From the NCBI RefSeq assembly GCF_001632365.1, contig NW_024468533.1, positions 377,206 to 438,973 of the forward strand: a DNA stretch of 61,768 nucleotides, written 5' to 3'. The notes beneath the pieces were generated by a model. That model was not told the DNA's origin, ran no database searches, and saw nothing but the letters and a program-made list of their open reading frames with translations. Origin of the DNA: Laetiporus sulphureus 93-53. Its lineage: Eukaryota; Basidiomycota; Agaricomycetes; Polyporales; Laetiporaceae. A program made the translations under genes and the position numbers. Of this stretch, positions 39,953 to 61,768 are shown one piece after another. The stretch's first letter is position 1; each line of letters begins with the position of its first letter.

Positions 39953-40711
39953 GCGTGCGGTGCGAGGTGCGTGCTCTTCTGCTTAGTGCACGCTCTGGTC
40001 TGATCATAGTGACGAATCTATGATAAATAATAAGGACAACGGACGGCTGCTTGTGTCTGCAGTGGACACGTTCGCGATAACGGTATCGAATAAAAACTCG
40101 TCGAAGCTATGATAATGCCTCGTGTCGTATCGATATTGTCTCTGCGTGTTCTAGCATTGTCTGTGGGGATCGCGCCGAGCACGGAGCTGACCCAAGTCAC
40201 CTAGTTGGTCACCCGCATTTTCTTGCTATTCTGCTCAAGTTTCCCATGACGGAATTGGGATAGGGTTCCGGGGGTGCATCTTCTCTGTCGTCCGTGGGAC
40301 GTATCAATGATTCAATTGACATGAGTGGGCGCTTCAAGCATCTTATACGACGGCATTGCGGCACTGCCCGCTCATTCGCTTCTGCCCTAGACTGGAAGCA
40401 GTTGTTTAGTAGATTATTAAAGTTCGCAACAAGTTTTCATCCTCATGCGTACGGGATTCAAGGGAAATACGCAAGAAGCAGAGTCTTGGGCGCTCTTGAT
40501 GACACTTATCTGAAGTTGATACGCGCCTGCTCCGCGAAGCACGGCGAATTGTAAGCATCAGCCCAAAAAACTGGCGACTGCTGTCAGCTTCATGAAATCC
40601 ATGCATGCAGCTCTTCAGCTGTCATCTGTTGGGTATCAGCGCTCTGGTACTGCGGAAGACGCAACTGCCTTAGTAAGTCGCGGCACTCTCCGGCTTCATG
40701 CACTCACTTAA

Positions 40712-40955
40712 CACGGCAGACATGATGCGATTTATCAATGTGGGAAATTGAGTGTGAATGTTGACTGATTTCTTACACATGTGACAAATATTTGCAACCA
40801 TGGCATTTCATGTTGAAAATGTTTCTCTTTGACTGTGAATGTGCACTATTTGCCATTTAAATGCTACATTGGCAAACCTTTGTGACAAATGTAAGACATC
40901 AGCTGACATTCCCACACTATTTTCCACATTTCTAAATCACATCATGTCTGCTGTG
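40712..40955. mobile_element. 244-bp MITE flanked by TAA
   Basis: Long inverted repeats: the left end CACGGCAGACATGATG pairs with the reverse complement of the right end CATCATGTCTGCTGTG, and the pairing continues inward (GATTTA..AATGTGG, then GTGTGAATG/GTGGGAATG). The 3-bp sequence TAA flanks both sides (40709-40711 and 40956-40958). Copy A lacks the insert at the equivalent place (about 7855), giving an empty site. A 3-bp TAA duplication fits PIF/Harbinger (Tourist-like) or CMC elements; there is no coding capacity. Confidence 0.8.
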
Positions 40956-41130
40956 TAATTGAGGTCACATCATTCAAACTCATGCATTCCTCCAGCTGCA
41001 GGCGCTGATCATTCTGTACAGTTGGAGATCACCTTCAACCTGTCACCAAGGAAGCAAGGCATACCCTCCAGCCCATTAAGTGCAGCAAGTACAAGAAGGG
41101 AAGGAGTATCCCTTAAGACCACTGTCCGTC

Positions 41131-42770
41131 ATGTCTGCGGTCAAAGAATTCAAACTGCAACAAGTCACGCAGACTCAGAGCTGCCAAAGAGAGACATCCA
41201 GGATGTCAGCATGCAGCAGCTCCTTCTCCAGAGTCCTGCGCCACCACTGGTAGAAATTTCAGACAGTGGCCTCCGTGCGTGGATGTCCGTCCTCGAAGGG
41301 TGAGTCACGATTGTTTCTGTGCAGGACGGGGGAATTGATCACACCATGATCAGGTTCATCATGCTGTTTTGCACACTCGGATACCTCAACTCATTTGGTG
41401 TCTAGCAGGCATACTTTACACTCGCTGGGATGTCCAGCTCATTCAATATCAGCTGGATCGGCTCTCTGCAGGTATGTTGTACAAAATTTCATACTGTAGT
41501 TACATTAATACATCATCCCAGCTCTTCCTGACATTCTTTATGGGGCTGCCAGCCAGGTGACTGCTGGACAAGGGGTACTTTCACATCACCACAATCGTTG
41601 GAAGTGTACTGCTTGTCTTCTCGTGAGTCACGAGCATCCTGAACGATTTTGTTCTGCTCCTGACCACGTGGCATAGGATGTTTATGTTCTCGTTGAACAA
41701 TCCTCACGATTACTATTAGGTCATCCTCTCACAAGGCATCAGGCTGGGACTCAGTAGTGGACTGCTGTTAGTCTCAGCCCAGTCCATACAAGCTCACCAC
41801 TGGAAGTGACGGCGTGCATTTGCCATCGAGATTGTGTCAACAGGCAGGTCCTCGCACTGTCATTATATTCAATTTCATGCTAACCGATCCTCCAGGTGCC
41901 AGCGTGGGCAGGATTGTGTACCCAATCATGCTCAACCAGCTCATACATGGCTCGGCAGGGTTCGCATGGGGCGTGCGCACATCGGCGTTCTTGACGCTCA
42001 GCCTGCTCACCATCACAAACTGTCTCATGATGACACAGCTGCCTGGAAGGGAGGATGGGTTGGCATCTATGGGCATGCTCAAAGCTGTCTTTGCTGACCT
42101 CGCATATATCTCGTTGATGATTGGGTATGTCGCTGCTGCTTAGTGTGATCCGATGGCTGCCTAAGATTGTCACAGGTTCTTCCTGATGCTCTGGAGACTG
42201 TACTATCCATGTCTATCCTCATCCGTTCTGTGCGCTGTGCTCCGTTGATGCCGCTTCACAGATTTCTACCTCCAACTATGGGTGAACCTCCACGGGCTGT
42301 CTGAGAACCTCGCATTCTACACCATGCATACCGTCCCCATCCAAATGCCACATCGAATCACTGACTGCCTGACAGATTGCGATCCTCAATGCAGCCTCGC
42401 TTCTGGGATGGGTCATGCTGAACATATTCATGGACGACTTTGGGGTGTTCAACATGCTGTGTCCCATCATCCTCATCATGGGCGTGCTCGTATTCGCAAT
42501 GTTTGACATGACACATACTGGCTCAGTCATCATCTTTGCGATTCTCTACAGATTCTTCAGCGGATCCTGTAAGCACCTCCACTGTCTGCTGTGCCTATGC
42601 TGATCCATAATCATAGACTTCTCTCTCACCGCTGCAGCACTCACATTGCTAGCAAAGAGTATAGATGAAGTCAGGTGCATATTGCGAATAAGCTCGAGCC
42701 TGTGCTGTTGGTTGTGTCACTCTATTGTGAACAGCGTCTGTCTCGATGCAGTGTGCTTTAATGGCATTCA
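41131..42770 (+). pseudogene. MFS transporter copy C, 5' part
   Basis: Starts MSAVKEFKLQQVTQT and follows transporter exons 1-9 of the gene at 8033. Stops include TAG in GV*QAYF, TGA in PAR*LLDKG, TAG after HDYY and TGA in HHWK*RRAF; two of these are CGA to TGA changes. Many other differences from copy A are CG to TG or CG to CA. The GC donor of intron 4 is kept (ACAG|GCAGGT). The reading is lost at about 42770, within the region equal to exon 10, where a large transposon has entered. The last part of the gene reappears at 49745-49985. Confidence 0.8.
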
Positions 42771-43504
42771 TCAGAAAGATGCTCATCAGGCTGTTGTACC
42801 GTGCCACACTCTGTCGTGCAACAGCGACAACAGCAGTCGACAGAGTGCACGTGAAAACATTACTGGTCTATATTGACAATGCAAATGCATGGCAACCATG
42901 GCGACAACAGTATGCTACTATTGTCAGACCTCACAGCTGTATAGTACAATATTTACTGGCTGGCGATAGATAAATTTACACAAGTCCTCTATCTTGATCC
43001 CACCATCCCCTCGCAAAGTTCGAACATAAAGAAGTCAATATGTGAGTTAAGATGAAATTGAACATGTCTGCTAAGCATGTCTGACGGTGTCCATGCAGGA
43101 TCTACAGGGCCATCTCTGAATTCTGGGATAAGGTGGCATGATCTTGAGATACTATTCACATTTATGATACCACTATGGTGTTGAGTATTTCACGTCGAAT
43201 GTTCAGTTACATAGTATCCTGACTCCGCATGCTTTGCCCGAAAAGGTCTGAACCAATAAATGTATGCGAGCACATCATTGGTGCATGCCAAGTGCTGAGG
43301 TACGCTGAAAATCAGGCATACTTGTGCAGCCTGTAGGCCTGCCGAAAACTGTGAGTTATGTGCCTGTATGCGACCTCCATCTAATCACTTATCAGATAAA
43401 CCTTCACATTCATGGTACGTTTCCCGGTCAAGGACTATGAGCACAGTATCAAAGTGTGCAGGAATAGGCTTGCGATGGCCTTGTCATGGCTTAGCAGGTG
43501 CAGC

Positions 43505-46500
43505 TCATATTTTGTCAATGCATTTCTCATTCGAAATATGTGCATTTGCAGGTAAAAGGATCGAGATCGAACTATAGATGTCAAAGCAGTCATATCGGTT
43601 TGGTGCCATGATCCCTGAGTTAGTGATGTTCAGGGCTGGGCTTGGCCTGAAAGCCTGGGCTTGGGCTCAGCTTCAGCAGGCTTGGGCTTGCCAGAATCGC
43701 AAGCTGGGCCCTCTGATAGAGCTCAGGCTCAGCTCGGGCTCAGCCCAGCCTAAGTCCCAAGCTTGTTACAGGCAATTAGATTTTCTATCTGCAGTTAATT
43801 ATCAATGTAAATTCACAAATGATCATCATACATCCATAATGAATCATTTTTCAAGCTCTTAGACAGGCTGGGCAGTGGTAAGGAGACTGAAATTCATTAT
43901 GAGACCTTGAAGATTGCTTCATTTCATGTCATGTGACCCCCTGCCTTGCCGGGAAAGCATCTATTTTGTGTGACTGAAAGCCCGGGCTCAGAGCTCTGAG
44001 CTCGGGCTTTTTCCAATTGAAAGCCGGGCCTCTGTACAGGCTTACAGCAGGCTTGGGCTTGGCTTTTGGCTGCTCGGCCAGGCTCAGCTTGGCCCGGCTC
44101 AGGCTTAAAAGCCCAGCCTTGGACAACACTACCCTGAGTAAGTCCTCTTCAAGTAGAGCTCGAGCACCTGAAGAAAATCACCAGCTTCGAAATGAGTTGA
44201 GATGTCATCGACAGATACCCAACAGAATATCAGTTGCTTGGGCAGCTGGTAGGTGCACTTGATGTTAGAGTTCATCAGCTGACACAGTGCACGATATCCT
44301 TCCTCAGCGTCTTCAGCTGCTTGCACATTGTCGTCTTCCTCGTCATCATCCTCAGCATCATGGTATTCGCTCTTTTCAATAACGTCTAGATCATTCTTCA
44401 CCTTGTCAACCCAGTGCAGATATGCATCCTGCCGCACTAGAGCCTCCTGTCGCTGGAGCCATGTTGTCATTTGCGAGATATATTCCTTTCGATTGGTCAC
44501 TTGGTAGGCTTTCTTTGCATAGTCGATGTGAAGGCATTCTGATGTCTCAGTGTTAAATCCATCCAGGGTCCCCAGAGAGTGAATTGCATCAATATAGTGC
44601 ACCAACACATGAAGTTTTGGTATGTTAAAATGTTTTTGTATGTCCGCTTCTATGAAGGCATCCTTGTTGGCATGCATGTCATCGATGACTTGTTTCATGT
44701 GAGTGAGGCTCAGTTCAGAATGCAACTGATATTGTGCATAGTAAATGAAGTCGATGAATGCTCATACCACATGTACTGTACATTTGTCAATTGCGTCTGT
44801 GAGTAGTTCCATGAAGACCTTCTGCATTTTCTTCTGCTCCTTCTCAGTCCATTGTGACACACCCGAGATGCCATCTTTGAAATAGCATAAGTGTGCATGT
44901 TCTGACATTGCCTGAAAACAATGGTCAAGGTCTTTTTTCCCTAGTAATGCGGTACACCAGGTGACAAAATGGTCTTTGAATATCCCCTTGTGCAGTTGAT
45001 GGAGGATATCAGACAAGAAATATGCGAAAATGTTAGTATGTGGAAGATCAGCCCAGAACAGTGAGTAGACTGGCCGTAAACCTTCAGTTTCGACACACTG
45101 ATCTTCGTCTCCCTGACCCATTCACCGTAGTATGTTCGCAGTATTCACATAGCTTCGGGGAGTGGATGCACATGGCTCACCCCGTGCTTTAGGATCAACA
45201 ATGCAGCATGGACAGTGGTTTTCCTTGCAGCAGACAATCAAACACTGCTCGGGGTAGTTTGCAATGTAGGCTGCAAGTATCAGAAAAACAACGTGGATGT
45301 GACCATCTGCACACAACATCTGCATGCCTTGCTGTCCTGCCTTCTGAAGACCATTCAACAAGACTGACATGCAGTGGTGAAACAGCTGGTATTGCACATT
45401 CGACCTGGTCTTCTCCTCGAAGCACTTGAGCTTGGGAACTGATATGTAGCCTAATAATGTTGTTGCGTGTGCTAATGGCTGATGACGTGTCACTTTATCA
45501 ATGTTGCTGATGGTAAGATACACTGACCATGCCATCTTGTCATTGCCAAAAACTGACAGTTGGATCTTATCAGATGCAAGTATCATGGAGGCCACAACTG
45601 CACCTGCAGGAAGACGCTCCTGCAAGTTTCACATTTGAGTTCTCAAGCGAGTCGGCTCAGAATTTATGAAGCGCGTACCTGCATCTTCCACCATCACTCA
45701 CCTGTGCACATCTCTGAATACTCTTGCATACCATTGTGAGTAACCCTTTCAGGTGCATAGCTCATGTGTCCCTGAAATGCCATGTTCCCCATCAGTTCCT
45801 TGATGCAATCAACAGAATCTTGAGCCCAGATTTCTACCTCCTCCGTCATTATGCTGTGCTCTCCAGGGCCTAAACGATTACCCTGGACCTCTATGAGCTC
45901 ACATCGCCACTCTGGATCAATGGGCAGCATGTCTATCTTTCGCATCAATGCCTTTATATTCAAAAACCTTGGCTTTGTGCATGCATGCATCTTTATTGTG
46001 CCTTCTGTAAGCCAATGAAATCATTCATTATAATATTTATACTTACGATGTCAAGCTTCAGGAACTCGTCAATTGCAGTCTGTGATGTGCACCTCGTTAA
46101 CCACTTCACAAGTTCGCACTCCTCGACATTAGCAAATGGTGCCCATGGCAGTTGTTATGTTGCTGACTGTTCTGCCAGATGTTCTTCAAAAATGGTCACT
46201 CCATGCCCAAGACTTGCTGCCATGCTGCCTGGGAATGGCTCGCATCTGTAAGTGAACAATTCTTCATCTTCAACCTCTTCGATGGTGACCCTCTGCTGCT
46301 TTGCAGGGTTGTCAATGGGTGTAGGAGATCGAGACACATGCAAGTAGTAGCCAGATAAGTCAGGAATAATGTCTTCATTGGGTTCTGCAAGGGTAGCGGC
46401 TTGCGGCTGCATTGCACCTTGGTTAGATAGCTTGTCATAGTACGTGGCACATGTGATCCTGTTTCTCAGGTGATGATTCAAGTTTATTACAGATTTGAAT

Positions 46501-46553
46501 GCCTTTCCACAGGATTGGCATTGAGAGCATCGGTTGGTGTGAGAAGACACCAT
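43505..46553 (-). pseudogene. Plavaka-like transposase 1, decayed and cut by a MITE
   Basis: The N-terminus has a C2H2-like finger (CQSCGKAF...LNHHLRNRITC). Then come recognisable blocks: IDEFLKLDI, KIDMLPIDPEWRCELIEV, NVQYQLFHHCMSVLL, ENHCPCCIVDPKARG, YFLSDILHQLHKGIFKDH, FNIPKLHVLVHYIDAIHSL and TSECLHIDYAKKAYQ. This is the order of Plavaka proteins of Agaricomycetes. Stops such as TGA before AFIDFIYYAQ fit CGA to TGA change. A 511-bp hAT MITE (43621-44131) sits in the 3' part. Its first bases, TAG, end the frame after YLKRTYSG; the old C-terminus continues beyond it to about 43505. Not functional as it stands. Confidence 0.78.
43621..44131. mobile_element. hAT-type MITE, copy 1 (511 bp)
   Basis: Ends TAGTGATGT... 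and ...ACAACACTA are imperfect inverted repeats (TAGTGNTGTYCARGGCTGGG on each end). An exact 8-bp target duplication, CCCTGAGT, lies at 43613-43620 and 44132-44139. Eight-base duplications and TAGTG ends are marks of the hAT superfamily. The interior is made of GC-rich palindromic blocks around GGGCTTGGGCTC, with an AT-richer centre; no protein is encoded. It interrupts transposase 1. Confidence 0.88.
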
Positions 46554-46712
46554 TCTTGTATATAACAATCGTGAGCTACCTCTATCATTCTAACGCATAC
46601 AGTGCAGTGATAAGTGCTGAGTAGTGGCACTCTCATCTCCAAACTCAAACTGATAAACTGAACAGGATCTAATGCTCAATCCTGACACCCTGCTCGCATT
46701 CTTTGAATCATC

Positions 46713-48945
46713 AAGATGCCCCATCCATCATCTGAGAACATGTCTCAGGCAGACGCAACACCTCATGCTCCCAGTACTCACATGCGACATCCAACAGAAA
46801 GGGCACAGTATGTCGGTGAGTGGTTGCGAGGCTAATCACTGATCGCATAGAGGCTAACATGCTCTGCATTGATAGAACAGCCTGAAAAAAACTGGCCATC
46901 TCAGAGATCTGCAAAGCGTCATGCTAAGCGTGCAGCCGCAGGTCAGTGTAGGCTCTGCTCTCAATGATGAATGCTCACATTGCATTTTATAGGCACCTTA
47001 CAAATGGCTGCGAGTGTTGCGCAATCCAGGCAGAATAAGTCTGAGGTAAGGCATATCATGTGAACGCTCTGACATGGCTAACTCAATATAGTTCTCAATG
47101 ACATCCACCAACATCCTTGGCAACTCACATTCCAGGACCTCTCAGCACATCAATCCCAAGGCTCATCTTAGCATGATGCCGAGAAATGTATCTGTGACTC
47201 CAAACAGGGTTCAGACACCACTGATGCATCATAAATCTATCTTTGAGAATAGCAATAGTTAATGTTACACAGAGTGCTCGCTGTCTGAGTCTGCAAGCTA
47301 CTGCCAGGCTTGCAGCCATGCAAAACTGATACATCAGCCCTCTCATCATGTCACACTTGCCTCCCTCAAGCCCACATCATCATGGTGAACAAGCCATAAG
47401 TGCAGAAGGGGACGGTGAGTGTATGGTTCTCTAAGAATCACAAATAACTCACTTTCAGCCCAGCTCACCTTTTCACAAATGTCCGAAAGTTCAAGCTTCG
47501 CCAACATGAAGAGGAAGACTTTTTCACTATAGATGAGGAGGATTGTTGACCTTCTCGTCAATGCCAGCGTATAAGTAGTCAACTGTTTCTTATTACTGTA
47601 ACAGACCTTGTCACTGACCTACTTCAGTGCATTCAGGACCTCTGACTTATGATGCATCTGAAGCCTTCGATGAAAGCGAGGGAACTGAGAAAGATGACAG
47701 CGACACAATGTCAGCATGTGACATTCAAAAGCATCATGACAAGCCTGTGAGCCTGCCACCCAAAGCACAAAAGATCATAGAGTGATCAGGTCATCCAAAA
47801 GCTGATGACTATGAGGCTTCAGCCTAAGAAGTGCTTATTGCAGCCATTGTCCACTATGTTGCATACCTAAGTACTGTCAATGCCTATCCAGATAAGATGA
47901 AGGAACTGGTTGCTGCCAAGAATGCCTGGTCCACAGCATGTGACGACACTGGCATTAAGCTCAGGCCCACTAACGAGCTTGTCAAACTGGCATGTCTTGC
48001 GGTGGCACGTATTTGATACATACACGAGATGGTTTGCTAACTGACCTGCACAGATTATAATACAGTACTCACTTTCAAAGTGAACTTAAGACAACTGCAC
48101 ATGGCTATGTTGAGACTGTCTTTGGCTTTCAGATGACTGGTAAGATAGCTGTGAAGAAGCGCAACCGTGCACTTGCAGAGAAGCTCTTAAAGAATGATGC
48201 TTTTGTCTATCGGGTGAGTCTCCGCATGATCTCATTGAATGCAACTCATTTATGAAACTTGTCAGAAACTCGGAGACATGAATAACCACTATAAGGGGCT
48301 TTATCAACATCGGATCATCCAGTTGATTATCAATAGAGTGTGGTTCAAGGACAAGCAGGATGATGGCATTGTTCTGGACAAAGTATATCACCCATTCCCT
48401 TTTGTGGCATTCGCCATTGTTCTGACAGCTGTAAGCATAAACGTCTTTGTGCGCATTTTTTATTGATGAATCCCTTACAGATTGAGTGCACTATTGATGA
48501 ATGGGTTAGCGGCACATGAAAATATGTAACATTCGCCATCGAAGCCTATAAGCATCGTTTTAAGCACCACCTGAGCACAATCAAGGACTACAATACTACA
48601 TTCGGTGATCTCAAAATCATGAAGAAGATATGTCAATGTGTGTTGGATGATGGATGATAAGCTTTTATATCTAATTTCGACTCGCAGCTGATTGAGATGC
48701 ATTGCTAGCATCAATGCAAAAGCCATTCTCATCGAAATGGAAGCAACATGTACCCTTGCTCGAATGCTATCAAGAACGCAATTGAGAAGTTCAGATAGAA
48801 GGATGGAAGCCTTACTGACTCAGATGACTCTGACAATGAGGGTGGAAATGGCAGTCACAATGGGCAGCCGGAGGTCGAAGATGGATTGGACCACTAGTGA
48901 AGGGGAGGGTTTGAATAAATATGTGCTTGCTCTGCCAATGTTGTA
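46713..48945 (+). pseudogene. DUF6532-like gene inside transposon 1
   Basis: Starts near 46713 (MPHPSSENMSQADATPH), about 160 bp from the oppositely oriented transposase start. The conserved core is in the 3' half: IAAIVHYVAYLSTVNAYPDKM, LRPTNELVKLACLAVAR, ALAEKLLKNDAFVY, GLYQHRIIQLIINRVWF, VYHPFPFVAFAIVLTA, IECTIDEW and HHLSTIKDYNTTFGDL. This order is typical of the DUF6532 domain found in mushroom genomes. Stops (for example TGA after KIIE, TAA in EASA*EV) fit C to T change. The role in the element is unknown. Confidence 0.7.
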
Positions 48946-49152
48946 AATGCAACTGCAATAACATTCTTGATACAGCTTCTATGGTGTGAACATGAAGATG
49001 ACCGAAATATATTGCACACATTGGATGGGTATCACCGTCGTTGCCACACAATGGAGTAATATATATCACTACATTTACTTTATGCCACACTCTGTCATAT
49101 GCTGTCGCATTTGTGGGAGATGACAGCATGCTCTGTTGTATGCTGTTGTACC

Positions 49153-49662
49153 TAGTGTTGTCCAAGGCTGGGCTTTCAAGCCCGAGCCAGGCCAAGCTGA
49201 GCCCGGCTGAGCTGCCAAAAGCCGAGCCCAAGTCTGCTGTAAGCCTGTATGGAGGCCCGGCTTTCAATTGAGAAAGCCCGAGCCCAGAGCTCTGAGCCCG
49301 GGCTTTCAGCCACATCAAATAGATGCTTTTCCAGCAAGACAAGAGATCACGTGACACAAAATAAAGTGATCTTCAAGGTCTCATAATGAATTTCGGTCCC
49401 CTTATCACTGCCCAGCCTGTCTAAGAGCTTGAGAAATAATTCATTATGGATGTATGATGATCATTTGTGAATTTACATTGATAATTAACTGCAGATAGAA
49501 AATCCAGTTGCCTGTAACAAGCCCGGGGCTTAGATCGGGCTGAGCCCGAGCTGAGCCCGAGCCCTATCAGAGGGCCCGGCTTGCAATTCTGGCAAGCCTG
49601 AGCCTGCTGAAGCTGAGCCCAAGCCCAGGCTTTCAGGCCAAGCCTGACCCTGGACATCACTA
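49153..49662. mobile_element. hAT-type MITE, copy 2 (510 bp)
   Basis: Nearly the same 510-bp unit as 43621-44131 but inverted. Its ends are TAGTGTTGTCC and CATCACTA, with an exact 8-bp duplication GTTGTACC at 49145-49152 and 49663-49670. It has entered the terminal hairpin of transposon 1. Together the two copies form a 510-bp inverted repeat about 5 kb apart. Confidence 0.88.
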
Positions 49663-49744
49663 GTTGTACCTGTGGGGTACAACAGCATACAACATAGGGG
49701 GGGGGTAATGACACAGCTACAGCTATGATGTTACCGATGTCGCA

Positions 49745-49985
49745 CAATGTCGGTGGCATGTGTCTTCCTGATGTTGTTTGCATTCCTCATAGGCATGCCG
49801 ATCAATGGTGCACTGCTGGGGAGTGACGACCAGTGATACCAGCCAACTGTGTTCAGTGGTGTAAGTGGTCCTGCCATGTATAATGGTCCTCGTGCTTATC
49901 GTGATCAGGTTGTGCTCATCGTCGGGTCTGTGTTCAAGTTTACCATCATTGCGTGATTCATGCATGCACAACACAAGGGCATGCA
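49745..49985 (+). pseudogene. MFS transporter copy C, 3' part
   Basis: Matches exons 10 and 11 of the transporter at 8033: the stretch around 49790 equals 9695 (ATCAATGG before GCACTGCT in A, GTGCACTGCT here). The intron donor GTAAGTGGTCC at 49862 and GATCAG before the last exon are kept. A stop replaces a Trp codon near 49833, and a TGA replaces CGA at about 49954. It is the far side of the insertion of transposon 1. Confidence 0.75.
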
Positions 49986-49989
49986 TCAT

Positions 49990-50400
49990 CTCCAACGGAC
50001 CAAGCCTGCTTCAAGCACTCTCGCTGCTAGTGTTGTTCCAATGTGCCCTTTGCAAAACAGCATGCAAACTCAGAAATGATAATCCCATCAACTCCGTGAT
50101 TGATTGCCGTCTTCACCGATGCATAGACGGCATTTAACCGTGGAGCTAATGGAATTAATCTCTCTAACCATAGTATGCAGATGTATAGTGACATTTCTTG
50201 TGATATTGATGGGTGCGCTTTCAGGAGGCGGACAGGTTGACGGAGTGATATTCTCTCTCTCCAGACATTGTATGAGATTATGCAACCACCAAAAGTGAGG
50301 CAGGTGCAAGCTGATGACAAGCTCACTACTATCATGTTATTCAGGCATATGAACTGGTAGCAATGTCATTAAAGCCTTGGTGTTCAGTGCACAAGCAATC
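49990..50400. other. gap between transporter copy C and transposon 2
   Basis: No clear gene. A short minus-strand piece at about 50045-50130 reads AINHGVDGIIISEF, which resembles the active-site region of FMN-dependent 2-hydroxyacid dehydrogenases, but it is too short to call. Confidence 0.3.
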
Positions 50401-50490
50401 CATCAGCAAAATTGTCGAAAACTTGCGAGGCCCTCACAAGCGCTGGCGACCATTATAAGTGCACACAAGCCTTGTGGATGCTCGCAAGGT
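50401..50490 (+). repeat. left terminal inverted repeat of transposon 2
   Basis: Imperfectly complementary to 57745-57830. Contains TTGCGAGG and GCTCGCAAGG motifs typical of subterminal binding sites. Confidence 0.75.
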
Positions 50491-50831
50491 TCTTACAAGG
50501 GGACTACAAGGCTCGCTGGCTCCTCGCCAGAGAGCTATTAGCCTGGCGGTTTTTTGTGAGCCTTGTATGAGCCTCGCGATGCCTGTGCCAGGCTTGTTTT
50601 CTCTCATAAGGATCTTACACTGGTGATCTCACATATGAAGTATCACAATGGTCGCAAATTACTAGGACCGTACTATGTAGTTAGTTAGACCACATTATAT
50701 ATATCATTGCACACAACCTATCCAGCAGCAGAAGCAAATTGATACAAGTAGCATGCACTGATAAGCTCACCATCAGCACAATGTAGCCACATGGACAGTC
50801 AGTGCATGCAAAAAAAACAAGCATGGATTTA

Positions 50832-53800
50832 CTAATTCAACGAGCCATAGCAGTCATCATCAAACACGCTCGCATGCTCGTTGTCTTCGCCTGATGCATC
50901 ATCGCTCGACTCTCCACTGTTGTCGTTATTCGCATCGGAACCACTCGAGCTCTCATTCTCTGAGTCACTGCCTGATGCGTACCTGAAGTTGTCCTCCTCG
51001 TCTTCACTCACTTCACCATTTGGATCATCTTCACCTGCATTCGAATCTGACTCTGCACTGCTGTCTTCTTCCATGTCGCTGTCTCTGCCTGATGCCAATG
51101 TGTGCATTCTAGTATCTGCTGAGCCCGAGTCTGAGCTGTTGTTATCATTGTCACTGTCTGTGGCAGAAGCCCTATGATTGCTACCTTCAGAGCTATCATC
51201 TGTATCTGACTCAGAGTCACTTGCACTGGAGCTGTCTTCTGTGTCTGCATTATCCTCGGCATCACCATCAGTTGATGGCTTATTGTCATCTGCATTCTCC
51301 TGGAGCAGCTGTTGTGAGACCTGTCAGATTGACTGGTGGCCCACACCCTTGCTGCGGAACCGCATATACATGTCGCAGTCCACAAATCTGAATGTCTCTA
51401 TATGAGCCTCGCAATTAGCAGTTCAAATGTACTCACATGTTGACATAGTAATATTGCCAATCTGCATCTTGCTCGGCAGGTGCACATACAAATGATGGCG
51501 GCAAAAGCATGTCAGTTATCCCATGTGCGAATCCAGGGATCAAGTGTACTGCCCGCATGACTTGATCAGGATCTAGAAATCTGAATGCACCAGGCTTGTC
51601 TGCATCGAGGAAGCCTACATGAGGAAGCCACTTGTGCTTCCATCCCCAGTTGTGCTGCAGGTCGATGCTGTACCAGCGAACCCACAAGAATGACATTCTC
51701 TTCAGTGCTGAGACCTGCCTGTCTGTGCCTTGCTGTCATACGTGTGCATGAAAGATGCCAATGATCTGAGCATACCAGTATGAATGAGCATGATCAGAGT
51801 CCTCATGGGACAAAACCATGATGTCCATGTGTGTCCTCAGATTGATGGAGTCTTGATTCCGGTGCATGTTGTAGGTAGTGTAGTTGATGCGCAGCACCTT
51901 GTGTTTATATAGATGGTCATTGACAATAAGCATGGAAGCATGTTCAGCATCCATATAGTCCACTTCGTCATCATCAAATGCATGTCCTAGCAGCTGGTCT
52001 AGTAAATGATCTTTGAGTGATGGTAGAAAATCCTGGGCACCAGGCACCATGTCAACATTTTCACGTGAACCCAGAATGTATCACTCACCTTCAGTGCAGG
52101 ATCATCAGTGTGCTTGTGCAGCCAAGACGGGATGTGTCTGTGGGCTCAATCACTTTCTGACATGTGAAAATGGGCACGGAGATCTGTCAATGGCAGTGGC
52201 ACCTCCTTTGCAATGCCTGCATCAACTTTCTGCATGCGAAGGTCTCGCCTGCTTTTGCAAGCTTGACTGCGGCTGGCATGGAGGATGTGCTCATGATGCT
52301 GGTGCTTACCAATCTGCAATGCAAATTTATGCTTGCTCGTGCGTGCGAAGAAATGCTTCACATGTCGATGCTCTAGCTCTGCCTGTGTAACATCATATCA
52401 AAATGTTTTGGGTCAAGCTGACAGGATGGATATACCACTTGTGTTGATGTCCCATCAGTGGTACCAAACATGTGTATGCTCTGTACATAGTCCCCCAGTG
52501 CATGCAGCTTTTAGGCTGACAGGTTGAAGAACTGTGCCTTTTTGGAAGTCGCGGCCTTGGTTGGGGCTGGGTTGCCAGAATTGGTGGCTTTGGCAGTGTT
52601 GCGACGCCCACGTGCAGCTTCTTTTTGTGGTAAATCGTATGTGGTGAAGGCTTTACATGTCTCTGCTGCAAAGCGCTGCAAGGAATGCCCTAATGCAGAG
52701 ATGGCATCCTCTAATAACTGCAGAGTTGTATCTGAATGCAAGCACAGCTTTGCGAGAGCGTGCCAGTTTGCGAGATCAAATAGAAGGTCCATAATAATTT
52801 TGTTGTGGTGGCCGGTGCCTATCAGGCACTCGAAGACTGGCATCGTGCACTGCATGATCATTGGTCAGCTTTGTGGTCGGCCAGTTTGAGGCAGCACTAT
52901 ACTTGTAGTAGATCTTCGAAATCTCATGCAGCAAGTTTCTTCATGCCCGATGCATTGTTGCTGAAATGCTGAATCGTGTCTCTGCCAAACGATGGGACTT
53001 GGCGGTAGCTACATTAATGTCAATATTTGTTAGTCAGTGCAAGAAGATTTACGTATCGTCTGTTCAATTCTTGTATGGTATCATTGCTGTATGCATACAG
53101 GATGCGCAACAGGTGTGTGAATGAAGCCTTCCAGATGCCAAGTTCAAACTCATGCAGCAGATCTGGCATGAAGATGGAGTAGACGTTGAATCTGAAAGGG
53201 GACAGACATGTCGCAAATGCGCTCTGAGAATAATAGCAAGTCAATATTAATGCTGCTGCCTCAAAAATGATGCTGTACTCACACGACTCGGGACAATGGA
53301 ACTGACACTGATTATCTCTTCAATTCTCTTGTATGCAAAGCTATACTCTTGGTAAATCCAGGCACGTGCACGCTCCAAGGCTCACCTGAGGGATTGGCTG
53401 TCGACTCATGCCAATTTGATACATTCTCGCATATCCCTTCGTGTTCCGAGTTTTGCTATATTGGCCTTCGAGATCAAGCAATGGGGACATGGACACTTGC
53501 CCAGGTACTTGATACAGGCTAGTAAAATCCTGAAAGCAGTTAGAGCAATGATTGCAAGATGGGCAGCATGTTTGAGACATACTTTTCAGGATAATCAGCC
53601 GAGTACGTGAAATGCACAGAAAAACTCAGTGCATTATTCCGTCTGCAAATTCCATGAGAATACCATACTCATATGCATGCATAAACTCCTCGTCAAGGAG
53701 CAATGCTATGATCACTTGCATCAACTCACACTTGCAATGAACCAGAGTTGCTACCGAGGTGACTGTGTTATAGACTGCCTGGTAAAATTCTTGAATGGTA

Positions 53801-55260
53801 TCTGGTAACTGCATCACATTCAGTTACAGTGAACGCACATGCATATATGATTGAAGAGACGTACCTTGGGAATATATGCGAGATGATGTGCCACAAAAGA
53901 CGTGGGCTTGGCACTGATGTACTTGGACTGATTGCCGATGAATGCATACATCGGCCACAAAGAAGCGGTGCCAAAATTGGCCAAGTGTGTCGAGTCTGAG
54001 TAGAGCATGATGGCTGCTATGACTGGCTCAATGTCATCTGGCTCTGAACATTGAGACTCAAGTTTCTTTTGTTCAGCAATCATCGCATCTGCAGTGTATA
54101 GCTCCCCATATAGACGCTCTGGGGGCGAGTCAGAGGATGGCTGCCAGAACTGTTGAAATGGGTGCATGTGAAACTTTTGTGCTGCAGTCTCACGAAAGGC
54201 GGTATGTAGCACCTCGAGCAGTTTGCAATAGAACATGCCTCCAATGGTGTACTCGGGGGTGGTGTCATCATGGGCCTGCTTATCATGTGAAGGGGGAGGG
54301 AGGCGAATCTTGACTGTGGTCTCATGCCATCCATTCGCTGAGGTACAGTAAATGCAGATGTCTTAACATGCTCGTTGAGATGCTGTACCTTGCGTGTCAC
54401 TCGAAATGTTGCAAGGTCCTCGCTACAGAAGTCAGGAGCCTGAATTACATCCTGTACAAGGCTGTCTAGGTTACTGAGTGACTTGCGGTCATTGCCATTG
54501 TAGAACCACTTCATGAGATGAAAGACTGTCGCATTTAGGAATGGGGCAAAGAACTCTTCTATCATAGCAAGTGCAGACCCAAAGCCTGTCCACCATCGGC
54601 TGCTGTTATCTGCTGTGGCTGTCAAGGTGAGGGCTTCGCAGGTGTCCTCGAGACCGAACAAGTCATGAGGATCGTATGTCGGCTGAGTGGAGTAGACACG
54701 GTAGACTCCATAGGCATCAGGTTCAGTCATGACAGTGAAATCAGGACATGGTGAGTTTGAGCTGTCAGAGTGACTAGGTGACATGTGAGGAGGTTGTGGG
54801 GTGGATGGGCATGGTGGTGATTCTGGAACAGGTAATGCAGATGGCACTGGTGGTACCTCATCCCGGTAGCGCTTTGGCAGACAGATGTGACGAGCTGGAT
54901 ACTCAGATGCTCATGCAGAGGGTGGAGATGGCTCAGGTCCAGGAACGTCGAAAGGAACAGAGTTGATGCCTAAGTACTGGGTTAGTTGACAAACAGAACA
55001 GAGTCAATGCATAACGTACCTGGCACATCCTCAACCTCCTCAACTTCATCCACATCCTCAATGCATGCACACTTGGCAGCTGCACACTCCTTCTATCGCC
55101 ATGTCTTCACCAGTTGATCCTCTTCATGTCTGCGCTTCCGACTCTCATGCACGAGTGTGGTCATCTCACCCAGAAATATCTTGCAAGAGCTCGTGTGAAC
55201 ACTGAGTGTGCGTCGGTCATAAAATGAATCATTATCACAGCCAGGGCAGACATGAGACAT
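50832..55260 (-). pseudogene. Plavaka-like transposase 2, decayed
   Basis: Starts MSHVCPGCDNDSF with a zinc-finger-like C-x2-C...H-x4-C. Conserved blocks follow: FNATVFHLMKWFYN-like FLNATVFHLMKWFYNG, DSLVQDVIQAPDF, LYGELYTADAMI, ANFGTASLWPMYAFIGNQSK, FMPDLLHEFELGIWKASF, YWYAQIIGIFHAHV, MSFLWVRWYSIDLQHNWG, MRAVHLIPGFAHG and WQYYYVNM then FVDCDMYMRFRSKGVGHQS. This is the standard C-terminal end of Plavaka proteins. A long Ser/Asp/Glu-rich tail runs from about 51290 to 50832. Many stops and lost splice sites are present. The central part (52.0-53.3 kb) is the most eroded. Confidence 0.78.
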
Positions 55261-55449
55261 GAGAAGGATAAATATTAAAGTGCAGAGCCAGGAGTTCATA
55301 ATAGAGATAGCAGTTGGATGATGCAGTTCCCTATGTCCGAGACATACGGCTATGGTGCATGGACATGTGACTTGAGAATGGACTGCCATGCATCTTCAAA
55401 TGTGTCACTTTGGGCACTTCACTGCACGCTGCGCTTTCCTTATCCCACA

Positions 55450-57463
55450 ATGCCTCCTACACGCTCATTGCTTTCCTCAGAGTTCTCGACTTCAGACAGC
55501 GACAGCAGCCCATCACCAACACCTCGCAAAAACAAGGACCTGTACAAAGTGTTGTCAAAGACAGTGCACCAATGCTGGATCAAGCTGTAAGTGAAACATT
55601 GAATGCACATAAATCTGATGAGTCTAATTCAGTCCATTTGCAGCAATGATGCACCACTCGCACCTTTCCTCGCTGCTGCCAGATGGATTCCACAGTCGAT
55701 CAGCTCATTTATCGACATAAGTAGTGCTTTTTACTCATCCATAAAGTGAGTAAATGTGGGGCTGGAGAAGGAGAAACTGAGGTAAGCATCGATGTGAATA
55801 TGAGCCTTGACTGACCTGTGTGTGATGTCAGGGACTTGCATGTGGCCCAGAACATGCAGGTGTATCACACCATCATGGATGTGAAGCTCGGCATATCCGA
55901 TGTGCACGTGTGCTATGAGAAGGCACCAGATAGACTGCGTGAGCTCTTGCGACAGGTGAGTCATTCTATGCAATAATATATGGTGCGCATATATGCATAT
56001 TTGCGTGTCATACCATGTGCAAAAGTGATGCTAACATGATGCAGCTGTACTAGATGAGGGATACTGCAAATATGGTGTGATCGTCTGACACGGATGGTCT
56101 CAAGAATGATGCGCTGCAGTACATCGAGCATGACCCAAAGGTCGATGAACCTTTGCCGAGACTGGATGACAAATCTGACAGAGGATTCGATCACAAAGTC
56201 CTCACCAAACTGCTATGCCCACACAGTTTTCTTGATGAACTGAAGGCAGACTACAAATTGTAAGTGCTTGATAATATGTGCAGAGCAATCTTAACATGCT
56301 TGACAGGGGTATTGCTGCATTACGTGAAGGTCAGGTCTCAATTACTGCAGTGGATTGGCTGTCATTTCTATACAACAATGAGCCCTTCGACATCACGGCT
56401 TTCAACCACGGGCTGCTATGAGGGCCATTCCTTCTCAAGGTATAATTATGGCAGGTTGGCAGGGCAAAACTAACTGATATTTAACCAGGTCTACAAGCAT
56501 ATTTTCATGGAACCAGGTTCAATATTCGGCACCACGTCAAGTTGCGGCGCCAAGGCTCCTATCAGCAAGAAGAATGGCCTCGAAGCTGCCACCGAGGTGA
56601 CGATCGCATATGCGGTGACCCAGGGGAGTGCCCTCTGCATCCTTCTTGACAGTCATAATCTGTTGCTTGCAGGCCCACTTTGTATTAAGCAAGCAAGCAA
56701 AATGGGGGCCATGCGATGGGAATTTCAACAACGAGCAGTTTTTCGAAGCAATCCTAGCACTATTCGAGGATCCCGAATGGGCCAAAGAAACATTAGACTA
56801 CTTTACCAAGTAAGCACGAGTCAGATTAATCAGGATGTCTAACACTCTTTATGTACTACAGGGAGGTTTTCAAGGGTCGAGACAAGAAGAAGAAAACAGT
56901 GACAGTATCAATGATGAGCCTGCAGGTGCTCAGAGAGATGCACGCTGCATGTAATCCTCCTCCTGCTGGAAATGACGGCCATGCCGCATCTGGCGACCAT
57001 GAGGAGGGCATTAACAATTGTGAACTGGAACATGATGAAGGAACAGGACCACTACCTCGTGAGGATCTACTTGGTGCATGTCATCCGGACGTACTCATTG
57101 TCATGGTGTAAATGCGCATACATTTCCATTCATTTAGGCTCCTCTCTCAGACACGCTGGCAATAAACAAGCATTGCCACATGATGCAGGTAGTAAGAGTC
57201 ACCCACGGATACTTGCGTGTATCTTCACTGACTATGCTATGGATCTGTGTGGATACATAGGTGGATCAGGCTCGTGAAAGGGGCGTACCAAGAGGTTCAA
57301 GAAGTGCAAGCATGTGGATGATGCTGATGAGGACACTGCACATGAGAAGACATTCAAAGATAAGACTCAGAGCAAGAAGAAAAAGGAGAAGCTTATGAAG
57401 GAATCGGCGGGTGTTCGAGTCAGCCTGCAGCATTCCTCACGGCGCTCATCGCTGGAGCACTAG
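55450..57463 (+). pseudogene. DUF6698-like gene inside transposon 2
   Basis: Starts MPPTRSLLSSEFSTSDSDSS at 55450, 190 bp from the transposase start on the other strand. Exons read on: FLAAARWIPQSISSFIDI, YHTIMDVKLGISDVHVCYEK, FDHKVLTKLLCPHSFLDEL, GIAALREGQVSITAVDWLSF, VYKHIFMEPGSIFGT, GPCDGNFNNEQFFEAILALF and EWAKETLDYFTK, then a lysine-rich tail near 57300-57400. This is the DUF6698 family of mushroom genomes. At least two in-frame stops (after RDTANMV and after FNHGLL) mark decay. The function is unknown; the position between the repeats shows that it travels with the transposon. Confidence 0.72.
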
Positions 57464-57744
57464 ACTCGGATGAACTGTACTATTCTTTCTTGGTGGACTT
57501 ATGGTATACCAGTGTATTCTTTCATTTCGTACAATGTTCGGTGTTATGTATTAGTGCATGTCTATGCTGTGCATGCAATAGGATTTTATTATTTCTATTA
57601 TTACACTGCAATTATCGCCCATGCCTCGCAAGTCTGTACCATGCATTGCAAGCCGCTGCCAGCCTGGCCACTTTCTCAAGGTTCGCTGGACCTTGCAAGC
57701 CCTTGCAACAAATCGAGGTTACTCGCAATGACCTCACCATACTG

Positions 57745-57830
57745 TTACAAGCCTTACAGGCCTTGCAAGGCATGGTGGTCCTGGCGAGGCCTTGTGAGGC
57801 CCTCGCAAGATTTTGTCACTTTTGCTGATG
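57745..57830 (-). repeat. right terminal inverted repeat of transposon 2
   Basis: Reads inward on the minus strand as CATCAGCAAAAGTGACAAAA, pairing with the left end at 50401. Confidence 0.75.
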
Positions 57831-58298: not shown

Positions 58299-59115
58299 TG
58301 TCACGGCTAAGCTTTGCCACACGAGACATGACGTCCATGGGTGCTTCACACATGACCCGCTCACGGGTGACCTTTATACTGAGTGCCTTGTAAGGCCCCA
58401 GGGTTCCACTTGGAGCGGTGACTCAAGATCCAACATAAAAGGGTGGTGAGCCCCCTATCAGCCAATGGTAGGCGAAGACAAGTGAGGGGCAATAGGCCTC
58501 ACTGTCGAGCTGACTCAGGGATGAAGGGTTGTGGCAAGCCACGATAGATGTGAGAAATAGATGAATAAGACTGGGGAATAGCCCAGTCGCATAGAGGCAT
58601 ATATATACATGTAGGGGCGAGGCCCTCTGATATTCTAGTATCTATGGGGTCCTTGGCTACCTACTATGTATGTGCATATTACATAATGTGCTACAGCCAA
58701 TGGCAATGTTCCTACTAGTAAATACTATGTGGTCATTGGTGGGCTGTAGGCTTATAGATAAGGTCATGGTCCGTGCGGCATTCCGTCGGGGTGCCGTCTC
58801 GGCCATGAGGTATAAGACCGACCTCCTTACCAATCCAGACCTCAGTGTCCCATGCCTATGCCCGAGCCTATTGAGCGGCTATCAGGATGTCATGTGCTTG
58901 GGCATCTCTTAAGGTCACGTGCCAGGGGCGCTTGATAGGGCGCTACCTTGTGGGTCACGTGATGTGTCGATTGGCGCAGACAATCGATAAGATCCTTGAG
59001 CGCTTAGCTGATCATCAATGATGTCGCATGGCTTTTGTGGCTGGCTTTGGTGATGCTGCTTGAGTCCAGTTACAGTAGGGCCTTCCGAATAGGGAAGTGC
59101 TAATATACTGTGACA
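58299..59115. repeat. complete LTR, 817 bp
   Basis: Bounded by the 6-bp inverted repeat TGTCAC/GTGACA. Its first 174 bases recur at 61595-61768 with two substitutions. Confidence 0.85.
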
Positions 59116-61594
59116 TCACCCCCACTTCATGGTTCATCGCCCTCGATGAACAGATGCTGTGAAGGCTGACTGAGCAGATGGGTGGGAGGGCAGGGTAATC
59201 GGCGTGCTCGCAGTTTAATGACTTGCGCATAGGTCTTTTGGTGTTCGCAGTTTATTCCTATAGACTTGCGCATAGGTCTTTGGGATCGCTATGGCTGGGA
59301 AATGGCCATGCTGGTGCTGGTAGTTTGTTCTGACATACATCGCGGTCAGGCTGACAGTTTAACCTCATGAGCGTGGAGGTTGGGGTGGTGCTTGAGATGC
59401 ATCTTTTGTCCCTTGAAGTCTTGGGCCAGGTTGCCAATACCTCTAAGTGGTGGCAGTGCCTTTTGCTTCTTCTTGGGCTACACCCCTTTTGAGGACTCCA
59501 GACCAGTATCAATGCTGATGGGAGTTGCCTGGTGATGTGTTTTTCGTTCCTATAGGGCTGCACTCAAACCCTTTGGGATCCCTTCAAGTTGCTTGCTTGA
59601 GGTGGTGCTCGCAGTTTTTCCTTTGATCTTGCGCATAGGATCTGGGGTCTGCAGTTTAACCTCATGCTTAGGAGGCACTCGGCTTGTTACAGCACCGTGT
59701 CAGGGTGTAATGCATAAGCTGCAGTTTTTTATTGGAAAGGTGCACCTATTTCCTTTCTATGTATTTTTGATCTAACCAGTGATCATATTCGCGCGTAGTG
59801 TGGCGAGTGGTCGTTGGGATGTAATAAGATGCTGAGTGGCATATGGCAAACTCTTGCATGATCCATCTTGTCCACGAGTTCATAGGTCTTTTCGTATGAC
59901 TCAACTGGTTGATTTGAGGCATAAAATTAGAGCTAAAAAGTGGTACTTCAGATCCGGCTATACGAACTGTGGCTATGTAACCAGCCTGTGGCCTTCTCAA
60001 TGGTTACGGCCAGTTTCGTGCCTCTCTGTGGATAAGCCTTGAAGGTTCAGGGAATACTGCGCTGCGCTCGCCCTTCAGCCTTCCAAGGTCTTATATCCTT
60101 TTCTCAATGGTCAAGGGCAGTATAGGTTCTCCCATCCGAATGCCATAGTTCTATGCTAGTTGACATACATCTAACATAGCATGAATCCTCCTTACTGGTT
60201 CAGAGGAGCGTGGCCTTTGGCCTACGCCTAATGGTCACCCGTGGAGACCAGGTCATTGTGCTTCACTACGTTACGCACATGCCTATATACCTATATTACC
60301 CACTCCTTGCCAAGCTCTTCTCCGGGAGTGAGCTGGCACTAGGCAAGACCCGCCTGGGTCTGAGCACCCACAGCTGTGCACTCCTGGGTGACGTGCGAGG
60401 GGCTACCCAAGGGAGAGAAATGAATAAGAAACAATATAGGGTGGGTGGGGGGGACTCAAAAAATTGGATGTGTTCAGCAGGTTTGCAGTTTATTCTGACT
60501 TGCACTAGGTCTTCTGGCAGGACATCTGTGGTCAAGTGCCAGGATCCACTCTTTGGACCACAAATTGGGTCACTTGAGTGGTAGATTGCTTGAACAAAGA
60601 TGCGCAATAGTGTCGCATTCCAAACGCGATGGGCGGCAGTTTTTCGATTCAACGTGCGCCTTGGTTGCATGTTTTTATCGCGTAAGACCTGGAATGAATG
60701 TTTCCCATGGTATCCCCATTTATCCCAATGTTGAACTATTCTTTGTGTCGTTCTTCGAATTTATACTCTATCCGCCCACAGTTAATAGTCAAAGGACTAC
60801 CGTGTGCTTGGATGAGTTCTTCTCGACTTGCGCTGTTCGTTCCGCAGAATGTTCTTGAACAGAAGGTGTGCTGACTAGACACACTCTTTCGCATGCAAAG
60901 GTTTAAACTGGTAGCATTCCAGGCTAGCATGCAGGATGTATGACCCTTATCCTATATGGATTCTTTGATCTACATTGATAACGGGTTTTTGCCGAGGTCT
61001 TCGGACTTGTTCTAGGCCCGCCTTTTGATCTTCATCAAGATATAGGATGTTTGCTCGCAGTTTAGTTTTCTTCTATCGAGGACATGCGCATAGGTCCTCA
61101 GATACACGGTCACAAATAACTCGAAGTGTTTTTCGTGCTGGGCGAAGCTTTTGAGTGGGCCAGCTTTAGGCAAGATCACTTTGATGCGCGATGGCTTTAT
61201 CAGGGGCCCTAGAGTATATTCCTATAGTCGACACAGGTATGCTACGCCTTGTCTAATAATTCCAAAGATCCTTCAGTCCATGTACCCACTCCTAGATCTT
61301 GATCCCAGCGAACACCGAATGGTTCCTGGCTGTTCACCCTCATGGAGGAGTGAAGGAAGCAACATGCGCTGATACCTTTTGTAGGCAGGGAGCAGCTTAC
61401 AGTGGGTAGAGTCGTAGGAATAGTGGAGGAAGTGATGTGGAAAAAGCCCTGCTCTCGGGCGGAATATCTCTGAGCAAAAACGATGCAGTTTAAAGACCTG
61501 CTCAGGTCTAAAAGTGCCTGGTCCTCAAAGGATCCTCAGGTCACTCCCCGCAGTCAGCCTGAGGCCGAAGGCAGGTGGTTGAGTCTTATTCAAA
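59116..61594 (-). pseudogene. degenerate interior of the LTR retrotransposon
   Basis: About 2.5 kb, much shorter than a full gypsy interior (5 kb or more). Minus-strand frames are short and full of stops. A motif PKTYAQVYRNK appears twice in variant form near 59220-59290, and the stretch 59750-60000 reads TTREYDHWLDQKYIERK. No protease, reverse transcriptase or integrase motif is visible, so the element is non-autonomous. Confidence 0.55.
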
Positions 61595-61768
61595 TGTCAC
61601 GGCTAAGCTTTGCCACACGAGACATGACGTCTATGGGTGCTTCACACATGACCCGCTCACGGGTGACCTTTATACTGAGTGCCTTGTAAGGCCCCAGGGT
61701 CCCACTTGGAGCGGTGACTCAAGATCCAACATAAAAGGGTGGTGAGCCCCCTATCAGCCAATGGTAGG
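61595..61768. repeat. second LTR, cut by window end
   Basis: Direct copy of 58299-58472 with two differences (CCATGGG/CTATGGG and GGTTCC/GGTCCC). Confidence 0.85.

What the first reader, a model, noticed from the sequence alone, without database searches (positions are those of the whole stretch)
42785..57830. Two Plavaka-type transposons, each with a head-to-head passenger gene of unknown function
Adjacent elements share one plan: transposase on the minus strand, and 160-190 bp away, divergently, a plus-strand gene of a mushroom-specific unknown family (DUF6532-like in one, DUF6698-like in the other). Both pairs lie between inverted terminal sequences. Different passengers in the same slot suggest that these families are transposon-borne accessory genes (regulators, anti-silencing or transposition helpers) using a shared divergent promoter, not ordinary host genes.
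Basis: partly seen in the sequence, partly recalled or inferred. Interest (0 to 1): 0.85.

Follow-up and report, generated by a model that had tools for sequence, protein, structure and literature searches.

The report
Plavaka transposons with a partner gene
Two decayed mobile DNA elements in the genome of a wood-rotting mushroom each carry, besides their jumping enzyme, a second gene of unknown function, and other copies in the same genome suggest that this second gene travels with the element and was kept by natural selection.

Summary
Each has a minus-strand transposase and, 162 or 189 bp away, a divergent gene: DUF6532 in A, DUF6698 in B. In this genome 16 of 18 Plavaka loci found have such a divergent partner. 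Eight are bounded on both sides by ends that enclose both genes. The partner family follows the transposase clade without exchange (12-row tree), the two genes diverge together (Mantel r 0.91, 3 of 720; r 0.65-0.69 without the one close pair), and old pairs show purifying selection (pN/pS 0.41-0.49; 1.0-1.3 in wrong frames). So this is not swapped cargo but a lineage-locked second gene. Both window copies carry in-frame stops and lie in a CpG-poor island. Function is inferred: most likely an accessory protein acting on the element's own ends, which carry family-specific subterminal repeats, or countering methylation. No fold or DNA binding was shown (AlphaFold pLDDT 33 and 37), and only one genome could be tested. 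I found no paper in the held library that reports the link; supplements and the key 2014 paper were not available.

The parts
42769..49773 (.). Element A: Plavaka transposon, termini CATCAGAAAGA.. / ..TCTTCCTGATG, 2-bp TSD TT
   Evidence: (edges of homology with the C38 copy)
42769..42788 (+). left end of A as compared (13 of 20 bases match the right end)
49754..49773 (-). right end of A as compared
42992..46553 (-). Plavaka transposase of A, N-terminal zinc-finger-like stretch (sequence reading; Pfam zf-C2H2 only at E 0.048 in the C38 copy), interrupted by a nested element; in-frame stops
46716..48897 (+). partner gene of A, DUF6532 (domain hits about 47840-48588); in-frame stops
46554..46715 (.). 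162-bp divergent intergenic region of A
43621..44131 (.). nested ~510-bp element, TAGTG..CACTA ends, 8-bp TSD CCCTGAGT (hAT-like, name by recall)
   Evidence: (inverted pairs I1, I2, 90%)
49153..49662 (.). second copy of the nested element, inverted, 8-bp TSD GTTGTACC
50401..57830 (.). Element B: Plavaka transposon, PlavakaB-type CATCA..TGATG ends, 2-bp TSD TC
50401..50447 (+). left terminal inverted repeat of B (47 nt, 83%)
57784..57830 (-). right terminal inverted repeat of B
50832..55260 (-). Plavaka transposase of B, N-terminal zinc-finger-like stretch (sequence reading); in-frame stops
55450..57463 (+). partner gene of B, DUF6698 (domain hits 56066-56810); in-frame TGA at 56419-56421
55261..55449 (.). 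189-bp divergent intergenic region of B
50422..50590 (.). left subterminal repeats of B (CTTGCGAGG / CTCACAAG / CTTACAAGG type)
57600..57811 (.). right subterminal repeats of B (same motif)

Best explanation
The two loci are dead copies of two-gene Plavaka DNA transposons. The DUF6532 or DUF6698 gene is the usual second gene of the element, not a host gene and not exchangeable cargo: it is inherited with its transposase lineage and was kept by selection, the two genes being divergently arranged around a short common upstream region. Most likely (inferred) the partner is a nuclear accessory protein that works on the element's own DNA: it recognises, directly or with the transposase, the family-specific short repeats clustered just inside the termini, and so helps synapsis or cleavage of the ends, or removes methylation or chromatin silencing from them, as TnpA of En/Spm or VANC of VANDAL21 do. 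Shown here: position inside the termini, divergent order, co-occurrence, lineage locking, joint divergence, purifying selection, subterminal repeats, CpG decay. Inferred: nuclear and DNA-directed action.
For: Both genes lie inside CATCA..TGATG-type ends in 8 loci; in 5 of these (C2b, C2c, C67, C35, C12) the ends were found without asking for a TSD, and in 5 of 5 a 2-bp TSD is there (A, B, C38). 16 of 18 Plavaka loci have a divergent partner, including the third clade C15/C40/C22. Each of 3 partner types sits on one transposase clade, support 100/100, 12 rows. Partner and transposase distances correlate: r 0.91, 3 of 720 relabellings as high, 6 elements. Partner pN/pS is 0.49, 0.41 and 0.43 in three old pairs against 1.0-1.3 in wrong frames. 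Terminal 7-mer repetition exceeds dinucleotide shuffles in the 7 elements where the test is clean (0 of 300 as high in 6, 3 of 300 in C38). CpG decay suggests methylation: 151 of 289 C67-to-C12 differences are CpG transitions, and window CpG o/e falls from about 1.0 to about 0.5.
Against: Function is untested; structure predictions failed (pLDDT 33 and 37) and no solved relative was found by sequence for the two partners tried. Without the close pair C67-C12 the distance correlation is weaker (r 0.69, 5 of 120; r 0.65, 6 of 120). Recent pairs show little or no frame contrast in pN/pS. The terminal test of A is spoiled by the nested element and is not unusual against internal stretches (49 of 300). 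Motifs do not recur in the divergent promoter (0 hits in 6 of 6), against promoter autoregulation by the same motif. C30b and C49 (identical over 2316 bp) show no partner, and C30a has a partner without a transposase nearby. 10 of 18 loci were not bounded on both sides. One genome only.
Confidence: 0.58

Rival explanations
1. The partner is mainly an anti-silencing factor (VANC-like): it strips or blocks CpG methylation of its own family, and helps transposition only indirectly.
For: Elements decay by CpG transitions and the window island is CpG-poor. [quoted passage not shown] Some Plavaka elements elsewhere carry a TET/JBP dioxygenase (PMC12730594, passages).
Against: Terminal motifs do not recur in the divergent promoter. 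No enzyme domain was recognised in the 9 partner models scanned. No TET/JBP match in this genome, though that search rang in no control genome either. Methylation itself was not measured.
Confidence: 0.25
2. The partner is a repressor or copy-number regulator of the transposase, acting through the divergent promoter.
For: Short divergent spacing, 162 and 189 bp.
Against: The terminal motifs have 0 hits in the promoter interval in 6 of 6 elements; about 3 and 7 would be expected in A and B at terminal density. A different operator was not searched for.
Confidence: 0.12
3. Host gene families that happen to be captured, or whose neighbourhood is preferred, by Plavaka insertions (ordinary cargo).
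For: Two different Pfam families occur in the same slot. A few domain hits lie away from a transposase (C12:121991, C20, C27, C26, C30:230572).
Against: Fixed slot and orientation in 16 loci. The hits away from a transposase are fragments, carry stops, or (C30a) still have a Plavaka end. No switching on the tree. Inside the ends in 8 of 8 loci bounded.
Confidence: 0.04

Closest known systems
Plavaka DNA transposons, PlavakaB lineage (Kojima 2025, PMC12730594; abstract, outline and searched passages seen)
   Same: Pfam Plavaka transposase, CATCA..TGATG ends, 2-bp TSD, Agaricomycetes
   Different: The passages seen describe TET/JBP as an added gene in some families and do not mention DUF6532 or DUF6698 ('DUF' occurs once in its text, in the word part of a reference or other passage, not as these families); here a partner is present in 16 of 18 loci
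En/Spm (CACTA) TnpA-TnpD of maize (recalled, from no call)
   Same: Transposase plus a second protein and short repeats clustered inside the termini; Plavaka is placed near EnSpm in the CMCT clade (PMC12730594)
   Different: TnpA and TnpD come from one transcription unit by splicing (recalled); here two separate divergent genes. DNA binding of the partner is not shown
VANC of Arabidopsis VANDAL elements (PMC5735166, abstract and outline seen)
   Same: TE-encoded non-transposase protein; short repeated motifs that differ between related families
   Different: Mutator-like transposons of plants; the Pfam scans of the partners list no such family; demethylation untested here
Nuwa-type Harbinger elements with a Myb/SANT second protein (mentioned in PMC12730594)
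   Same: DNA transposon with a second, non-transposase protein
   Different: No Myb/SANT match at E up to 1 in the 9 partner models scanned

Membership tests
Plavaka transposon | PF18759 transposase domain | tested here: met
   A: 4.6e-82; B: 8.5e-12, above the cut-off
Plavaka transposon, PlavakaB | termini CATCA..TGATG, TSD 2-3 bp | tested here: met
   A and B; definition from PMC12730594. C2c has CATCG ends and C12 one CAGCA end
[quoted passage not shown]
   catalytic residues were not mapped
DUF6532 (PF20149) | profile match above the curated cut-off | tested here: met
   A 97.9 bits, C38 84.4, C2a 116.6, C40 35.0 (cut-off 24); C15 23.5, just below; C22 and C52 models not scanned
DUF6698 (PF20414) | profile match above the curated cut-off | tested here: met
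   B 86.6 bits, C67 183.4; C35 196.8, C2c 162.1; cut-off 23.7; others by exon hits only
One superfamily uniting DUF6532 and DUF6698 | profile-profile similarity | tested here: inconclusive
   hhalign probability under 1%, but the profiles are too shallow: the C40/C15 rows score only 4.5% against the other DUF6532 rows although Pfam joins them
TnpA-like or VANC-like end-binding protein | repeated short motifs in the noncoding ends | tested here: met
   7 of 7 clean elements against shuffles (C67 and C12 are close copies); A not testable because the nested element lies in its right terminal stretch
TnpA-like or VANC-like end-binding protein | sequence-specific binding to these repeats | not testable with these tools
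   no usable fold and no binding data
TET/JBP-bearing Plavaka | TET/JBP dioxygenase gene in the element | tested here: inconclusive
   no PF12851 match in the genome, but nothing rang in the controls

The most novel reading that the evidence does not exclude
The mushroom 'domains of unknown function' DUF6532 and DUF6698 are the second gene of Plavaka transposons throughout Agaricomycetes: a lineage-locked, end-recognising or anti-silencing partner without which Plavaka does not move, possibly all of one remote ancestry.
Probability: 0.35. Interest if true: 0.8.

Novelty: new variant of a known kind. Interest (0 to 1): 0.62.

Why it matters
It ties two orphan gene families of mushrooms to a mobile element and gives them a testable role: Plavaka would be a two-component transposon. 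Counts of DUF6532 genes would then partly be transposon counts; one Ganoderma study lists DUF6532 and Plavaka together among 'additional' domains of G. boninense and G. leucocontextum (PMC8955403, one passage seen). It also offers a fungal setting, with less decayed relatives in the same genome, for asking how DNA transposons meet CpG methylation.

Tried and rejected
Exchangeable cargo: rejected by the tree. DUF6532-DUF6698 homology, suggested by eye: not supported by hhalign, which was underpowered. Structure: two AlphaFold jobs on two-row alignments gave pLDDT 33 and 37, so no fold search was run. PDB by sequence for P0001 and the C2a partner: nothing. Homologues in other species: three protein searches returned only proteins named Laetiporus sulphureus (4 in all; none), so no cross-species test was possible; two scans of viral contigs gave nothing. 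Paired ends for C15, C41, C6b, C2a and C52: no convincing pair (its first run failed on N); the left side of C15 is a run of N, and the flanks of C40 and C22 were not fetched. Autoregulation through the terminal motif: no motif in the promoter. A 2209-aa open frame reported at C49 is a run of N. The identity filter lowers dN, so the unfiltered ratios are quoted.
Full report
What is there. The window is C24:377206-438973 of a 38.6-Mb genome in 124 contigs. Three proteins named Laetiporus sulphureus 93-53 lie on contigs of exactly the lengths of C67, C12 and C38; a fourth, identical to the C52 model, is listed on a contig of another length (284903 against 262208). I take the genome to be that polypore (Agaricomycetes). 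Element A spans 42769-49773 and element B 50401-57830. Each contains a minus-strand Plavaka transposase and a divergent plus-strand gene: DUF6532 in A (9.4e-28), DUF6698 in B (2.5e-24). The ATGs are 162 and 189 bp apart. Termini are CATCA..TGATG with 2-bp duplications TT (A) and TC (B), the definition given for PlavakaB in PMC12730594 (passages).

How the ends were found. In one search a matching TSD was part of the filter, so A, B and C38 alone do not test it. B is independently found as an inverted pair of 47 nt, 83%, and the ends of A coincide with the edges of homology to C38. In one search ends were found by motif alone: C2b 1269455-1277443 (TG), C2c 1460041-1468823 (TC, ends CATCG), C67 11168-21345 (TA), C35 109392-117053 (TA), C12 613116-621710 (TT, one end CAGCA). 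In 5 of 5 the 2-bp TSD matches. Altogether 8 of 18 loci are bounded on both sides, and all 8 enclose both genes. For the other 10 one or both ends were not found or not fetched.

Association. I merged the exon hits into loci; these lists are lower bounds. The C2:100418 and C2:109481 hits lie on two sides of an 8247-base run of N and match successive parts of one transposase, which leaves 18 Plavaka loci. A divergent partner is present in 16: A, C38, C52, C2a (DUF6532); C15, C40, C22 (a longer DUF6532-type protein: C40 1.8e-8, C15 6e-5 just under the cut-off; C22 by similarity to C40); B, C2b, C2c, C67, C35, C12, C41, C6b, C9 (DUF6698; C6b and C9 by weak exon hits only). C30b and C49 have none in the 2.8-3.3 kb fetched on that side; they are identical over 2316 bp and C49 abuts a run of N, so they may be one locus assembled twice. 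Seen from the other side, 4 of 5 DUF6532 loci and 9 of 13 DUF6698 loci lie divergently within 5.3 kb of a transposase. The rest: C12:121991 (a 100-aa fragment); C6:383475 (Plavaka end at 382260, transposase fragments about 1.1 kb away but in the same orientation; with these fragments there is a 19th, non-divergent Plavaka remnant); C30:230572 (Plavaka end on its side, no transposase in the stretch fetched, nearest 29 kb away; its model skips a stop); C20 and C27 (short hits with stops inside, no Plavaka hit on the contig; not fetched). C26 holds a fragment of the long type. I saw no intact gene away from Plavaka features, within these capped lists. The chance values (2e-11, 2e-23) overstate the case because copies share descent; one search counted 19 transposase places.

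Lineage locking. A tree of 12 transposase models (C2a left out as a fragment; C41, C6b, C9, C30b and C49 not included; A, C22 and C52 fill 44, 49 and 14% of the columns) puts DUF6698, short DUF6532 and long DUF6532 on three separate clades, each with support 100/100, with no switch. Within the DUF6698 clade, distances of partner and transposase correlate (r 0.91; 3 of 720 relabellings as high; 6 elements); leaving out C12 or C67, which are close copies, gives r 0.69 (5 of 120) and 0.65 (6 of 120). Apart from that pair the identities are 23-54% (partner) and 35-55% (transposase), so the pairing is old.

Selection. Unfiltered pN/pS of partner genes, 7 pairs: 0.49 (A-C38), 0.41 (C40-C22), 0.43 (C35-C67), 0.50 (C35-C30a), 0.59 (C67-C12), 0.67 (A-C52), 0.71 (C67-C41). 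The same alignments read in frames +1 and +2 give 1.02-1.26 for the first three, 0.81 and 0.91 for C35-C30a, 0.90 and 0.78 for C67-C12, 0.57 and 1.13 for A-C52, 0.74 and 0.75 for C67-C41. Recent pairs thus look like decaying copies. In A-C38 and C35-C67 pS is 0.7, near saturation. Transposases: 0.27 to 0.61 in 4 pairs. I read this as both genes having been kept while the elements were active.

Ends and silencing. Leaving out the first 40 bp, the terminal 2 x 350 bp hold more repeated 7-mers than dinucleotide shuffles: 0 of 300 as high in B, C2b, C2c, C67, C35 and C12, 3 of 300 in C38. Against internal stretches of the same element 0-7 of 300 are as high. For A (1 of 300 shuffles, 49 of 300 internal stretches) the right terminal stretch lies largely in the nested element, so that test does not count. 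Motifs differ between clades: CTTGCGAGG/CTCGCAAGG in B, CAACAGC in A and C38, AGGCAAT in C67 and C12, CAGATAA in C35. They have 0 hits in the divergent promoter in 6 of 6 elements (four of the intervals from approximate models); at terminal density about 3 and 7 would be expected in A and B. The motifs were picked from the termini, so their enrichment there is by construction. CpG o/e is 0.92-1.04 in the eight 5-kb bins of the first 40 kb of the window and 0.43-0.60 in the rest; it is 0.85-0.97 in C38, C2b, C2c, C67 and C35, 0.43 in A, 0.51 in B and 0.62 in C12. Of C67-to-C12 differences 151 of 289, and of C67-to-C41 139 of 318, are CpG transitions, while about 11% of C67 bases compared are in CpG. 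I infer that the host methylates these elements; methylation was not measured.

State of the window copies. Tblastn of relatives shows stop codons inside coding stretches of both transposases and of the A partner (some of the counted stops lie in introns). The B partner has an in-frame TGA at 56419-56421. Element A contains two inverted ~510-bp elements with 8-bp TSDs.

Mechanism. A second protein that is locked to its transposase lineage and faces family-specific subterminal repeats is most simply a partner acting on the element's own DNA. TnpA of En/Spm (recalled) and VANC (abstract of PMC5735166) are models for how it might work, not claims of membership. Absence of the motifs from the promoter makes action at the ends likelier than autoregulation through them. 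Nothing here shows DNA binding; both structure predictions failed, probably for want of homologues.

Known or new. Full-text searches of the held library for DUF6532, DUF6698, PF20149 and PF20414 returned one paper, a Ganoderma genome study that lists DUF6532 beside Plavaka. 'Plavaka' returned 11 papers, 10 listed; of these I saw passages of five: Kojima 2025 (also abstract and outline), two Marasmius papers, the Amoebidium paper and the Ganoderma paper. None of those passages mentions these partners as Plavaka genes. Supplements were not open to me, and Iyer et al. 2014 is not held, so an earlier report cannot be excluded.

Noticed in passing
window 43621-44131 and 49153-49662: Two inverted ~510-bp copies (about 90% alike) of an element without a seen gene, TAGTG..CACTA ends and 8-bp duplications CCCTGAGT and GTTGTACC (hAT-like by recall), nested in element A.
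   Followed up: partly
window 40001-61768: Sharp fall of CpG o/e from about 1.0 to about 0.5: a decayed transposon island next to normal sequence.
   Followed up: partly
window 58299-59119 and 61063-61768: Stretches 90-92% identical to contig C22 (L029 8549-9370, 9197-9901) beside another Plavaka element: a different repeat family.
   Followed up: no
own genome C41:305342-316514 and C5:177624-198118: Pairs of inverted ends of the C35 family 11 and 20 kb apart (one mismatch in one C41 end, two in each C5 end) with no transposase or partner among the listed hits: possible larger or rearranged elements with other content.
   Followed up: no
own genome C55:211692-214410 and C99:50840-53231: 2.4-2.7-kb pairs of similar ends (two mismatches each) with no listed gene hit: possible non-autonomous derivatives.
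   Followed up: no
L025 237-2716 (own genome C38): A long caspase-like open reading frame (FHYAGHGSRV..FDSCHSGG, recalled motif) just outside the C38 element.
   Followed up: no
window 40711-40956: 98-nt inverted repeat (78%) with a 50-nt spacer (I3).
   Followed up: no
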